From contig JAFXUX010000008.1 of assembly GCA_017524805.1 (NCBI GenBank), positions 1 through 64,000 on the forward strand: DNA of 64,000 nt. Direction: 5' to 3'. The translations under genes were made by a program, and so were the position numbers. This DNA is from Candidatus Methanomethylophilaceae archaeon. Its GTDB lineage: Archaea; Thermoplasmatota; Thermoplasmata; Methanomassiliicoccales; Methanomethylophilaceae. Shown piece after piece: positions 8,044-26,284 of the stretch. The notes beneath the pieces were generated by a model. That model saw only the letters and a program-made list of their open reading frames with translations. It ran no database searches and was not told the origin of the DNA. Positions within the stretch are counted from its first letter, which is position 1; every line of letters starts with the position of its first letter.

Positions 8044-8820
8044 ATGAGAAGGATTGCCATCTATGGGAAGGGCGGAATCGGAAAATCGACCACCACTTCC
8101 AACGTCACCGCCGCCCTTTGCGAGCGCGGGCTGAAAGTCATGCAGATAGGTTGCGATCCGAAATCCGATTCGACCGGTTTATTGCTGGGCGGGAAAAGGC
8201 CGCTCACCGTTCTCAACGCCGTCCGCGGCGGGGGATCGCCGACATTGGACGACATAGTCTTCGAAGGATATGGGGGATCCCTTTGCGTAGAGTGCGGAGG
8301 CCCCAAGCCAGGCACCGGATGCGCTGGCAGAGGGATAATAGCTGCTTTTGAGACTTTGGAGAGGCTGGGGGCCGTAGAGCATTACCGCCCCGATGTCGTG
8401 CTGTACGATGTTCTCGGGGACGTGGTGTGCGGCGGATTCGCCATGCCGATAAGGAACGGCTATGCCAGGGACATATTCGTCGTCACTTCGGGGGAGATGA
8501 TGTCTCTGTATGCCGCCGGCAACATAGCGGAAGCGGTGAGAGGATTCTCCGACAGCGGCTATGCCCGTTTCGGCGGTCTCATACAGAATTCCAGGGCTAT
8601 CCTCGGCGAGGATGAGAAAGTCCGCCAGATGGCGGAGGAGCTGGGCACGGAAGTCATCGCCATCCTGCCCAGATCCGGGACGGTCCAGGAATGCGAGGCG
8701 ATGAACATGACTGTTATGCAGGGCGCACCGGATTCGGCCCAGGCGGAAGCGTATCGCAGCCTGGCATCGGAATTGATGCGCAGATCGGAGGAGGCCGCAG
8801 GCGGTCTCAGAGGGATGTGA
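8044..8820 (+). CDS. cfbC: Ni-sirohydrochlorin a,c-diamide reductive cyclase, NifH-like subunit
   Basis: ATP-dependent electron donor that, with CfbD, reduces and cyclises Ni-sirohydrochlorin a,c-diamide to 15,17(3)-seco-F430-17(3)-acid in F430 synthesis. The 258-residue protein has the NifH-type P loop GKGGIGKST (8-16) and the two cysteines that bind the bridging 4Fe-4S cluster of the dimer, C93 in GCAGRG and C129 in VVCGG. The open frame runs upstream to 7981, but the ATG at 8044 begins the family's MRRIAIYGKGG. An AT-rich TTATTAATC about 25-30 nt upstream could be the TATA box. It leads the five-gene F430 operon, which rules out nitrogenase or chlorophyllide roles. Confidence 0.93.
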   Translation: MRRIAIYGKGGIGKSTTTSNVTAALCERGLKVMQIGCDPKSDSTGLLLGGKRPLTVLNAVRGGGSPTLDDIVFEGYGGSLCVECGGPKPGTGCAGRGIIAAFETLERLGAVEHYRPDVVLYDVLGDVVCGGFAMPIRNGYARDIFVVTSGEMMSLYAAGNIAEAVRGFSDSGYARFGGLIQNSRAILGEDEKVRQMAEELGTEVIAILPRSGTVQECEAMNMTVMQGAPDSAQAEAYRSLASELMRRSEEAAGGLRGM

Positions 8821-8825
8821 ATATC

Positions 8826-9605
8826 ATGGCGAAGAAAGCATTGCTGATAGTTGGGCACGGATCGAGATACCCCTACAACAAAGACATAATGGAGCTGCAG
8901 AAGCGGCGCCTGGAAGAGATGGGATTCGAGAACGTTTATATTGGATTCAACGAGACCTCCCACCCATTCATAGGGGAGACGATGGAGAAGATGGCCGCGG
9001 ACGGCGTGGACGAAGTCATGGCTATCCCCTTCTTCATAGCGTCCGGATTGCACATGGTCAGGGACATCCCGCCGAAGCTCGGATTGAAAGACGGGTGCAA
9101 GCAAGGCGAGGCAGAGTTCTCCGGGCGCAAAATGAAAGTCAGCTTCGGAGAGCCATTCGGCAAAGACGCTATGCTCGCGACGATTCTGGCTGAGAAAATA
9201 AAGGAGACGAAGAAAGGGTCGGACACTGCGATCATAGTGGTCGGCCACGGATCCAGGCTTCCCCACAACAAGGAGATCATAACCCTGAACGCTTCCCGCC
9301 TCAAGGATATGGGATTCTCCAACGTGTTCCCCGCGTTCAACGAGTTCGACGAGCCCGACCTCAAGGAAGTCTTCGACTCCTGCGCCGACGGAAGGTTCGA
9401 CGAGATAATCGTCCTCCCGCTTTTCATCTCGCTCGGAGACCACCTCAAGAACGATATCCCTCCCAAGATCAGGCAGACGGACGGCTGTCCGGACAGCGTG
9501 ATCGAATGCGCCGGAAGGAAGGTCAGGGCGGTTTATGTCACGCCGGTCGGCGAGGACCCGCGTCTGACCGATATATTCGCGGCCAAGGCCAGAGAGATGC
9601 TCTGA
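8826..9605 (+). CDS. cfbA: Sirohydrochlorin nickel chelatase, two-domain form
   Basis: Inserts Ni2+ into sirohydrochlorin, the first step specific to F430. Methanogen CfbA is usually a protein of about 130 residues acting as a homodimer. Here the 259 residues hold two CbiX-like domains in tandem. Domain 1 carries VGHGSR (H11) and SGLHMVRD (H76). Domain 2 carries VGHGSR (H141) and LGDHLKND (H206). Both keep the metal-binding histidine pair. The domains share a similar layout (NKDIMELQKRRL / NKEIITLNASRL), so this is an internal duplication and fusion. It starts 5 bp after cfbC and is followed by cfbE 3 bp later. The F430 operon context favours nickel over cobalt. Confidence 0.9.
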   Translation: MAKKALLIVGHGSRYPYNKDIMELQKRRLEEMGFENVYIGFNETSHPFIGETMEKMAADGVDEVMAIPFFIASGLHMVRDIPPKLGLKDGCKQGEAEFSGRKMKVSFGEPFGKDAMLATILAEKIKETKKGSDTAIIVVGHGSRLPHNKEIITLNASRLKDMGFSNVFPAFNEFDEPDLKEVFDSCADGRFDEIIVLPLFISLGDHLKNDIPPKIRQTDGCPDSVIECAGRKVRAVYVTPVGEDPRLTDIFAAKAREML

Positions 9606-9608
9606 GGC

Positions 9609-10835
9609 ATGGGCATGGAAGCTCTCGTGTTGGATATGACCCATGGCGGGTTCGTCATCGCCGAGCGCCTGATGGATCGCGGATGGGGAGTGACCTGCGT
9701 GGACGTCTACAAGGTGTCCTCTCCCGAATGCGATGCGCGCATGGCAGCCAGAGGATTGGTTGCGCTGGACGAGGCTCCCGAGAGGCATTTCGACGCCGTA
9801 ATCATGCCCGCCCATTGCCCCGATTCGTTCATAGGCAAGGCATCGTTCGACAGGAAACTCACCTTCAGCGATGCGGTGAAGGAACTCATCCCGGACGGGC
9901 TTCCGTTCAGGATAGAGGTCACCGGCGTGAAAGGGAAGACCAGCGCGTGCTATCTTCTCGCCCACATCCTGGACTCCTGCGGGAAGAAGGTCTTCTTGCA
10001 CAGCTCAAGAGGGCAGGGCCCGTATTCCGGGGGATCCCACAAGGTCGAGGCTCTCAGAAGCATCGCACCCCCATTCATACTGGAGCTTCCAACGGAAGGC
10101 TATGACGTCATCATATCGGAGGTCTCCCTAGGAGGCAGCGGCCGCGCGGACATCGCCGTCATAACCAATCTGGTGGACGATTACGGCATAGCCAAGGACA
10201 CCAGGAAAGCTTCCGATGCCAAGGTCCAGATATTCTCCTCCGGAACTAATTTCGTGAAGGAAGACGAGCTGGATTTCTGGAGGGCCAGAGCGTCTGGATT
10301 TGATTTCAAAACCTTCGGTGAGAACTGCCGCGCCATCGATGCGCCGAAGCTCGGTTCTCCGCTGCGCATAAAGTATTCTTATCAGGGGGCGCAATGGGAA
10401 GCGTCGCTCTCGCCCGATTATATTTCCACGCAATATCTTCCGGCCATCGATACTGTTCTCAGGATATCAGAGAGCATGGGAATCCAGGCCGACAAAGTGA
10501 AAGGGGCGCTGGAGTCCTTCCGCGGAGTTCCGGGCAGAGGCGAGGTATACTTCCAAGATGGCCGGTGGCTCGTGAAGGAGAGAAACCCGGGGATATCGCA
10601 CATCTCCATCGGGATGACCATGGAGTGCCTGAAGGCGATGGGCGCTTTGGACGGATGCTTCGTTGTAGTCGACCCGGTCAGCAGGAAGGTCTGCGACAAG
10701 ATGAAGGCCCCGCTCATACGCGAGGTTCTGGATGGGTACGGCGTGGAGTACGTCATAACCGACGGTAAGGGGGAAGAGGTCGACGTTTCCGGCCACAAAA
10801 CGGTCGTGACATTCATCAAGGAGGCATGGCAATGA
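9609..10835 (+). CDS. cfbE: Coenzyme F430 synthetase (Mur-ligase-like)
   Basis: ATP-dependent ligase that closes the last, carbocyclic ring of F430 by activating the propionate side chain of seco-F430. The 408-residue protein has a Mur ligase central domain with the P loop TGVKGKTS (105-112), the ITNLVDDYGIAKD segment and a C-terminal ligase domain with FRGVPGRGEV. An N-terminal Rossmann-like part (LVLDMTHGGFVIAERL) matches the family. A second ATG at 9615 is an alternative start. Its stop overlaps the start of cfbD. Identification rests on motifs and on operon position. Confidence 0.9.
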   Translation: MGMEALVLDMTHGGFVIAERLMDRGWGVTCVDVYKVSSPECDARMAARGLVALDEAPERHFDAVIMPAHCPDSFIGKASFDRKLTFSDAVKELIPDGLPFRIEVTGVKGKTSACYLLAHILDSCGKKVFLHSSRGQGPYSGGSHKVEALRSIAPPFILELPTEGYDVIISEVSLGGSGRADIAVITNLVDDYGIAKDTRKASDAKVQIFSSGTNFVKEDELDFWRARASGFDFKTFGENCRAIDAPKLGSPLRIKYSYQGAQWEASLSPDYISTQYLPAIDTVLRISESMGIQADKVKGALESFRGVPGRGEVYFQDGRWLVKERNPGISHISIGMTMECLKAMGALDGCFVVVDPVSRKVCDKMKAPLIREVLDGYGVEYVITDGKGEEVDVSGHKTVVTFIKEAWQ

Positions 10836-15648: not shown

Positions 15649-15930
15649 TCAGAACCTTCTAGGGGGCATGGGCTGGAAGCCGTATCCTCCGCCGCACGGT
15701 CCTCCCATCGGGGGCCTGCACGGGGGCTTGGGCTCTTCCCACGGGTTCTTGCAGCTTGGCTGTCCCCACCCCATGGGTTTCCAGCGGGGCATGTCCATGG
15801 GAGGCATCGGGACTTCCGGCCTCCTCCAGCGCATTCCCATCGGAGGTCCTCTGGGCCCTCTTCCGTGGCCGGGTCCGCCGCGCATCCTCATGAGCCTGCG
15901 GAAGTCCTCCTCGCTCATGGATGCGCGCAT
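15649..15930 (-). CDS. Pro/Gly/Met/Arg-rich segment in frame with the upstream MarR gene
   Basis: From the first ATG at 15930 this frame encodes 93 residues. It begins with a charged helix (SEEDFRRLMRMR) and then becomes rich in Gly, Pro, Met, Arg and Trp, with three Cys and one His (CKNPW, PPCRPP, GGPCGGG). It is exactly in frame with the MarR gene upstream and separated from its last codon only by an amber TAG (15958-15960) and nine sense codons that continue a plausible helix (EDGREFIER). No good ribosome binding site precedes 15930. I think it is the C-terminal part of the regulator reached by amber readthrough or pyrrolysine insertion; a separate small gene is the alternative. Confidence 0.55.
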   Translation of the reverse strand: MRASMSEEDFRRLMRMRGGPGHGRGPRGPPMGMRWRRPEVPMPPMDMPRWKPMGWGQPSCKNPWEEPKPPCRPPMGGPCGGGYGFQPMPPRRF

Positions 15931-15957
15931 GCGCTCGATGAATTCTCTGCCGTCTTC

Positions 15958-15960
15958 CTA
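15958..15960 (-). other. In-frame amber codon (candidate pyrrolysine or readthrough site)
   Basis: The codon after GCA GAC GAT GGA is TAG on the minus strand, followed by 102 open codons before TGA at 15649. Nearly all other genes in this window end in TGA, so TAG is a rare codon here. Confidence 0.5.
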
Positions 15961-16392
15961 TCCATCGTCTGCGCTCTTCTCTTCGAGGCTCGCGATCACT
16001 TTGCCGAGGATGGCGTTCAGGCTCCCAAGCTCTTCCTCGTCGAGGCAATCGAAGATGTCCTCGGCGTTGAAGGGATCCTGGTTCAGCTGCTGGCCTTTTT
16101 CGGTCAGGCGGACGATCATCACCCTCTTGTCTTCTTCTGAGGGCACGCGCTCGACGTATCCGTCCCTCTCCAGGCGGAGCAGGAGCTCGTTAAGAGACTG
16201 CTGCCTGATCTCCATCAGGAATGCGAGGTCCCTGGTGCTTATCTCGGATTTGATCTTGAGGATGGCCATCACACGTCCCTGTCCCCTGGTCTTGTCCATT
16301 ATCGGATCCAGGTCGCGGGGGAACATGCTCCTCCTCATCAGTCTGTTCAGGTGCATCACTTTCTCGCAGGCAGACTTGTGCATATCACTCAT
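15958..16392 (-). CDS. MarR-family transcription regulator (ends at amber codon)
   Basis: The 144-residue part before the amber codon is a MarR-type winged helix protein. It has helix 1-2 (EKVMHLNRLMRR), the HTH (ISTRDLAFLMEIRQQSLNELLLRLERDGYV), the wing with EEDKRVMIVRLTEKG, and the C-terminal dimerisation helix (LGSLNAILGKVIASLEEK). MarR proteins repress their own and neighbouring genes and respond to small molecules or metals. The ATG at 16392 is chosen because the promoter and two inverted repeats lie just upstream; the longer frame to 16596 would cover the promoter. The frame continues past the amber codon (see the next-door entry). Confidence 0.82.
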   Translation of the reverse strand: MSDMHKSACEKVMHLNRLMRRSMFPRDLDPIMDKTRGQGRVMAILKIKSEISTRDLAFLMEIRQQSLNELLLRLERDGYVERVPSEEDKRVMIVRLTEKGQQLNQDPFNAEDIFDCLDEEELGSLNAILGKVIASLEEKSADDG

Positions 16393-16415: not shown

Positions 16416-16455
16416 ACAGGCTACCTGTATTTAAATTTATACATGGTGCCTGTAT
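16416..16455 (-). promoter_or_regulatory. Promoter and probable autoregulatory operators of the MarR gene
   Basis: On the minus strand the TATA-like TATAAATTTAAA (16430-16441) lies about 44 nt before the ATG. An inverted repeat ACAGG-CTA-CCTGT (16416-16428) falls between TATA box and expected start of transcription. A second one, ATACA...TGTAT (16439-16455), overlaps the upstream edge. This layout fits repression by a MarR dimer at each site. Confidence 0.55.
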
Positions 16456-16515: not shown

Positions 16516-16541
16516 TGTGCATGCACACGTCATTTTAATAA
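16516..16541 (+). promoter_or_regulatory. Palindrome plus TATA box, copy 1
   Basis: TGTGCATGCACA (16516-16527) is a perfect 12-bp palindrome followed by CGTCAT and the TATA-like TTTTAATAA. The same palindrome with the same spacing stands before larE (19456-19482). Confidence 0.5.
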
Positions 16542-16582
16542 TCTTAAAACAAACAATAACCCGTATGATGGAGGAATTCATC

Positions 16583-16753
16583 ATGCAAAACAACAATGCA
16601 AAAGATGTAGCAGAGACAAAAAGAATTCATGGCGTCGAACAAAGGGTAAGGGAGGGTGCCAAACATCTGCGTCCGTTCACGTCGGAAGATATCGATGTCG
16701 AGGAAGATCGTTGCGGGGGCGAAGAATCGTTCGAATCGGCGGCGGCTGATTGA
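16583..16753 (+). CDS. Small acidic protein, unknown
   Basis: The 56-residue protein starts MQNNNAKDVAETKRIHG and is acidic and glutamate-rich towards the end (EDIDVEEDRCGGEESFES). I do not recognise it. Support for a real gene: a GGAGG 8 nt before the ATG, an AT-rich promoter about 45 nt upstream preceded by the TGTGCATGCACA palindrome, and TGA as stop. No membrane segment is visible. It precedes the zinc-ribbon membrane protein but is probably transcribed separately. Confidence 0.5.
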   Translation: MQNNNAKDVAETKRIHGVEQRVREGAKHLRPFTSEDIDVEEDRCGGEESFESAAAD

Positions 16754-25703: not shown

Positions 25704-25720
25704 TGTCAGACCTATGGGGC

Positions 25721-26284
25721 CTAACGCGCGTTCAATAATAAATTGTATCGCGGACTGCCGATGAAAACCACGCCGTATAATGTGACGGCATCCTTCTCGA
25801 AAGCGAATCCTTCGCCGTTGGCTTTCGCGAACTCGGCCATGTCTATGCCAAGGGCAGACACGGAAGGAATGAGCATCTCGGGGAATCTGCACGGCTCCGG
25901 GTAAGAGCATACCCCGCAATAGCGGCATCCGCCGTCGGAAAAGCCTTCGCTGACATATCCCTCCCTTCTGAGCGCCAGCACTACGTTTCTGACGTGCGTC
26001 TGCAGGTCTTCGCCCAGCTTCTCCAAAGCCATCACGTCCCTGAAGTCTACTTCGAATCTCTTCTTGAAAACCCCGGCCATGTCGTATTTGCCGCGCAGAT
26101 CGCGGATGTTGCCGGAATATCCGGGAGGGCAGCCCCAGGTCCTGCCGTAGCTGCCGCATTTGTTCTCTGCGCAGAGACTTCTGCATTTGAGCAGGGATTC
26201 CTCGCTGTACTCCGGCAGTTTCCAATCCATCAGATCGAATCCTTCCGGAAGGGTGTCCGCCGCGACGTTCCTCCAAGGCTTCAT
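25721..26284 (-). CDS. DUF2284 cysteine-rich metal-binding protein (ends in TAG)
   Basis: The 187-residue protein has many cysteines in the DUF2284 pattern: LLKCRSLCAENKCGSYGRTWGCPPG (residues about 32-56) and GCRYCGVCSYPEPCRFP (about 118-134). These probably bind an iron-sulfur cluster or other metal. Function is not established. It is divergent from the TPR gene across a 77-bp region with a TATA box for each. Unusually it ends in TAG, followed by Ala-Pro, a second TAG, Val and TGA, directly before gatC. TAG termination is rare in this window. Confidence 0.85.
   Translation of the reverse strand: MKPWRNVAADTLPEGFDLMDWKLPEYSEESLLKCRSLCAENKCGSYGRTWGCPPGYSGNIRDLRGKYDMAGVFKKRFEVDFRDVMALEKLGEDLQTHVRNVVLALRREGYVSEGFSDGGCRYCGVCSYPEPCRFPEMLIPSVSALGIDMAEFAKANGEGFAFEKDAVTLYGVVFIGSPRYNLLLNAR

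What the first reader, a model, noticed from the sequence alone, without database searches (positions are those of the whole stretch)
15649..16392. MarR-type regulator interrupted by an in-frame amber codon with 102 open codons beyond it
Seen: the regulator's frame reaches TAG at 15958-15960 and then stays open for 102 codons to a TGA at 15649, in the same frame. The nine codons after TAG (EDGREFIER) continue naturally into SEEDFRRLMRMR, so coding appears to pass through the amber codon. The extension is rich in Gly, Pro, Met, Arg and Trp with three Cys and a His, and lacks its own ribosome binding site. Known: Methanomassiliicoccales encode pyrrolysine at TAG in methylamine methyltransferases and avoid TAG as stop. 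Inference: this may be a regulator with an inducible or conditional C-terminal domain that depends on Pyl-tRNA supply, a way to sense pyrrolysine or methylamine status. Such a regulated Pyl protein is not, to my knowledge, described.
Basis: partly seen in the sequence, partly recalled or inferred. Interest (0 to 1): 0.8.

Follow-up and report, generated by a model that had tools for sequence, protein, structure and literature searches.

The report
Tailed MarR regulator containing amber codon
A gene-regulator protein of a gut methanogen has a UAG "stop" codon in the middle of its reading frame; relatives show that the part beyond it is a normal piece of the protein, so the codon is most likely read as pyrrolysine, as already known for dozens of genes in these archaea, and nothing shows that it works as a switch.

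Summary
The minus-strand MarR-type gene reads from ATG 16392 to TAG 15960-15958, then stays open for 102 codons to TGA 15651-15649. The open frame alone is weak evidence (5-9% by chance). Homology is decisive. A sister rumen species (MAG Tb.RUG.172) has the same gene in the same place, 84% identical over its full length, with CAG (Gln) at the TAG. dN/dS beyond the codon is about 0.2 in this frame and above 1 in the two other sense-strand frames. Bacterial relatives, where TAG is only a stop, also read straight through this point into the same helix and a glycine-rich tail.

The genome has a complete pyl operon with tRNA-Pyl(CUA). TAG lies inside mtmB, mtbB, mttB, citrate synthase, FeoB and others. 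The gene is therefore most likely one 247-residue tailed MarR protein in which a Gln/Pyl codon exchange occurred at a variable loop.

The proposed Pyl-sensing switch is not supported: the TAG is not conserved, and the tail is an ordinary family feature. Genes of this kind are already described (16 extra in M. alvus, 46 in ISO4-H5). Five of 14 archaeal family copies carry TAG, a mild curiosity.

The parts
15652..16392 (-). MarR-type regulator, 247 codons with TAG read through (stop codon TGA 15651-15649)
   Evidence: (PF01047 38.5 bits, cut-off 24.6)
15958..15960 (-). in-frame TAG, codon 145; CAG (Gln) in sister species G026
16093..16290 (-). winged helix-turn-helix (MarR domain, residues 35-100)
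15877..15957 (-). two extra helices after the TAG (residues 146-172), conserved in archaeal paralogues and in bacterial homologues
   Evidence: dN/dS 0.09
15652..15876 (-). Gly/Pro/Met/Arg/Trp/Cys-rich low-confidence tail (residues 173-247), family-typical
   Evidence: dN/dS 0.24
16416..16428 (-). palindrome ACAGGTAGCCTGT just upstream of the gene, conserved in G026 and similar to the ACAGGTAACTG motif before the paralogues; likely auto-operator (inferred)
16441..16453 (-). ACAGGCACCATGT, second part of the putative operator on the other side of the TATA-like box (inferred)

Best explanation
The gene encodes one 247-residue MarR-type transcriptional regulator of a subfamily that carries extra C-terminal helices and usually a Gly-rich tail. 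In this lineage the codon for residue 145, in a variable loop after the last dimerisation helix, differs from the sister's CAG by one transition to TAG. TAG is read mainly as pyrrolysine by the genome's tRNA-Pyl/PylS, so the tail is made as in the relatives. Shown: tail homology, purifying selection between the two species, the pyl operon, and TAG inside other conserved genes. Inferred: Pyl insertion at this codon, near-neutrality of the change, and autoregulation through the upstream palindromes. Members of the subfamily sit next to ABC, CDF, MATE and MFS exporters, so an efflux-type repressor is the likely role.
For: Syntenic orthologue with CAG, 84% identity over the whole length. dN/dS 0.11 before and 0.22 after the TAG; in the ungapped part after it 0.20 in frame against 1.28 and 1.18 in the other two frames of the strand. 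Paralogues in six genomes (G001, G006, G011, G018, G026, G027) align through the codon, E150 invariant. Bacterial homologues run through it into the same helix motif (RxRMGDExFxxLMxMRG). tRNA-Pyl(CUA), PylS, PylB, PylC and PylD all above NCBIfam cut-offs. Internal TAG in mtbB and mttB, in full-length matches to citrate synthase NF010635 and FeoB TIGR00437, and within the M20 peptidase domain. 18 of 31 TAGs against 69 of 570 TGA/TAA stops are followed by coding sequence, p = 7e-9. Citrate synthase across the genus: 9 of 38 matches hold one internal TAG, none holds TGA or TAA. Neighbouring transporter-like genes in bacteria.
Against: No protein evidence. In the direct G026-versus-G000 comparison, interruptions by TGA (4) and TAA (2) were as many as by TAG (4), so a nonsense mutation at this single codon cannot be excluded by that test. 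TAG does end a few genes in this genome, e.g. a DUF2284 protein in the window. The genome is fragmentary and the base is not independently verified.
Confidence: 0.8

Rival explanations
1. Conditional tail: TAG makes two products, a 144-residue MarR when Pyl-tRNA is scarce and a 247-residue form when it is plentiful, so that the regulator senses methylamine or Pyl status.
For: The TAG lies exactly at the end of the last canonical MarR helix (H119-145), so both products could fold. Group-B paralogues in G001 and G018 carry TAG at another domain/tail border. In total 5 of 14 archaeal copies hold TAG.
Against: The TAG is not conserved: CAG in the sister, Trp or other sense codons in most paralogues, and one TAG (G018 C2) lies inside the domain. 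The tail exists in bacteria without need of Pyl. TAG is present in unrelated genes of this genome. No TAG-specific RNA structure: the downstream hairpin is the same in the CAG species and not clearly stronger than shuffles.
Confidence: 0.06
2. Nonsense mutation: TAG terminates, the tail is lost in this strain and is decaying.
For: One C-to-T step from CAG. Similar single-step TGA/TAA interruptions exist in the genome. A 144-residue product would be a complete MarR fold.
Against: Frame and coding signature intact over 102 codons with a whole-codon indel only. A functional pyl system and internal TAGs in conserved genes such as citrate synthase make termination at TAG unlikely in this cell.
Confidence: 0.08
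3. Sequencing or assembly error or a minority variant at one base of a draft (probably metagenome-assembled) genome.
For: Single base difference from the sister species; reads are not available here.
Against: Internal TAGs recur in independent assemblies of the genus in the same family and in citrate synthase, where the codon is TAG at the same residue in both G000 and G026.
Confidence: 0.04
4. Independent downstream gene starting at ATG 15930.
For: A 93-codon ORF starts there and the ATG is also present in G026.
Against: No ribosome binding site. In G026, the paralogues and the bacteria this segment is the continuous C-terminus of the regulator.
Confidence: 0.02

Closest known systems
Predicted Pyl-containing proteins outside methylamine methyltransferases in Methanomassiliicoccales (PMC4153887: 16 in M. 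alvus; PMC5011839: in-frame amber in 46 genes of ISO4-H5)
   Same: In-frame TAG in an ordinary conserved gene, sense codon in relatives, complete pyl operon, TAG rare as stop
   Different: Here a MarR regulator; homology and dN/dS across the codon are tested, not only BLAST continuity
MarR family (PF01047), nearest solved structures by sequence 2fbi and 3nqo
   Same: Winged helix and dimerisation helices
   Different: Two extra helices and a long Gly/Pro/Met/Cys-rich tail after residue 145
Tailed MarR subfamily of gut bacteria (Diplocloster, Fretibacterium, Breznakiella, Clostridiales)
   Same: 38-55% identity, same extra helix motif and Gly/His/Pro-rich tail
   Different: Ordinary sense codon at position 145; no Pyl
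MtmB/MtbB/MttB methylamine methyltransferases
   Same: Internal TAG read as Pyl in the same genome
   Different: There Pyl is catalytic and conserved; here the position is variable

Membership tests
MarR family regulator | MarR winged-helix domain above curated cut-off | tested here: met
   PF01047 38.5 bits vs 24.6
Tailed MarR subfamily | Continuous frame into the extra helices and Gly-rich tail in most members | tested here: met
Pyl-encoding gene | Complete pylTSBCD in the genome | tested here: met
Pyl-encoding gene | In-frame TAG with conserved coding sequence downstream | tested here: met
Pyl-encoding gene | TAG used mainly as sense codon in the genome | tested here: met
   18 of 31 TAGs followed by coding frame vs 69 of 570 other stops; a few true TAG ends exist
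Pyl-encoding gene | Pyl found in the protein | not testable with these tools
   Needs mass spectrometry
Pyl-dependent regulatory switch | TAG conserved at the same place among orthologues | tested here: not met
   CAG in G026; other residues in all other relatives
Pyl-dependent regulatory switch | Truncated and full forms depend on methylamine or Pyl supply | not testable with these tools
   Needs experiment

The most novel reading that the evidence does not exclude
Tailed MarR regulators of Methanomethylophilaceae repeatedly place TAG at domain/tail borders, so that tail synthesis and thereby the regulator's output depends on pyrrolysine supply.
Probability: 0.06. Interest if true: 0.75.

Novelty: new member of a known kind. 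Interest (0 to 1): 0.3.

Why it matters
It adds a clean comparative case (CAG in one species, TAG in its sister, tail under purifying selection) that TAG behaves as a sense codon in gut Methanomassiliicoccales. Annotation with the standard code would cut such genes short, including citrate synthase. If the switch reading were true it would be the first Pyl-sensing regulator known to me, but the evidence is against it.

Tried and rejected
A first genome-contig scan with the single protein found nothing; a scan with the family alignment worked. In the test 'homology continues past the stop' by tblastn, TGA and TAA stops also gave hits because neighbouring DNA is conserved between the two close genomes, so I used coding score, full-domain matches and dN/dS instead. 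An RNA structure after the TAG was considered and rejected. Independent initiation at 15930 was considered and rejected. A recent paper on an archaeal code with all TAG codons as Pyl, which I remember but which is not held in the library, could not be read, and the report does not rest on it.

Full report
Observation. The open frame alone would occur by chance in 5-9% of such stretches, so the case must rest on comparison.

Comparison across the codon. A search of 60 related genomes found one orthologue, in genome G026 of the same genus, 84% identical over residues 1-247. The matching named record is rumen MAG Tb.RUG.172, Methanomassiliicoccaceae archaeon (same 36529-base contig length). It lies in the same gene order (Lrp regulator and AlaX-like gene beyond the tail). 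Its codon 145 is CAG; the window has TAG, a single transition. The direction of change cannot be fixed from two sequences. Beyond the codon the two genes differ mostly at third positions: dN/dS is 0.09 for residues 146-172 and 0.24 for 173-247 (0.11 before the codon). In the ungapped 231 bases after the codon it is 0.20 in frame and above 1 in the other two sense-strand frames. The only indel is one whole codon.

The family. Twelve further archaeal copies (groups A and B, often in tandem) in six genomes of the genus align through residue 145; Glu150 is invariant. A scan of named genomes gave 60 relatives, mostly gut Clostridia, also Fretibacterium, Breznakiella, Bathycorpusculum and Methanobrevibacter. 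The closer bacterial ones run through the codon position with K, S, E, D or a gap, continue into the same helix motif, and end in Gly/His/Pro-rich tails. The AlphaFold2 model (mean pLDDT 63) puts residue 145 at the end of the last long helix, then two helices, then a low-confidence tail. The tail is thus an old family feature and the TAG sits in a variable loop. In relatives several adjacent genes look like CDF, ABC, MATE or MFS exporters by sequence inspection, which suggests an efflux repressor; in the window no transporter is adjacent. Palindromes ACAGGTAGCCTGT and ACAGGCACCATGT flank a TATA-like box before the gene, are kept in G026, and resemble ACAGGTAACTG..CAGTTACCTGT before the group-B paralogues. 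Autoregulation is inferred.

How TAG is read. Contig C25 of the genome has tRNA-Pyl(CUA) and pylS, pylB, pylC, pylD above NCBIfam cut-offs, beside mtmB, mtbB and mttB with internal TAG. In 0.68 Mb sampled, 601 gene calls ended TGA 497, TAA 73, TAG 31; 18 of the 31 TAGs but only 69 of 570 others were followed by coding sequence (Fisher p = 7e-9). Citrate synthase, FeoB and an M20 peptidase hold TAG inside their domains. In the genus, 9 of 38 citrate synthase matches contain TAG and none TGA or TAA; G000 and G026 share the TAG at the same residue. A few TAGs are true ends, e.g. the DUF2284 gene at 25721. This agrees with published counts: 1.6% TAG stops and 16 extra Pyl genes in M. alvus (PMC4153887), 46 in-frame amber genes in ISO4-H5 (PMC5011839).

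Limits. When intact G026 genes are compared with G000 DNA, internal TAG (4), TGA (4) and TAA (2) are equally rare, so the pairwise test alone does not separate recoding from nonsense mutation at this codon. No protein data exist here.

Verdict. Best reading: a tailed MarR repressor whose residue 145 is encoded by TAG and probably read as pyrrolysine, one of a few dozen such genes expected in this genome. The proposed Pyl-sensing switch fails its main comparative test (no conservation of the TAG). The remaining curiosity is that 5 of 14 archaeal copies of the family carry TAG, at three different internal places and once near the end. At least two copies may share one event, and without background rates in those genomes this is only suggestive.

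Noticed in passing
L074:7925-8470, L035:1480-2028, L073:8573-9142 (-), L011:1007-1546 (-): Group-B MarR paralogues in other genomes of the genus also hold in-frame TAG: two at the helix/tail border where relatives have Trp, one inside the domain, one three codons before the TGA end.
   Followed up: partly
L085:13316-14668 (-), genome contig C9: Citrate synthase gene with an internal TAG near codon 58, shared with G026; standard-code annotation would break it.
   Followed up: yes
window 25706-26284 (-): DUF2284 gene ends TAG-Ala-Pro-TAG-Val-TGA: a tandem TAG/TAG/TGA end, apparently a real TAG terminator with backup stops.
   Followed up: partly
window 9603-9605 (+): TGA between the ORFs 8691-9605 and 9609-10835; in G026 the codon is CGA and the two are one 714-residue ORF (split or fused genes).
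   Followed up: no
window 16517-16753 (+): Small ORF of up to 78 aa divergent from the MarR gene, similar one in G026, no family match; possible target of the regulator.
   Followed up: no
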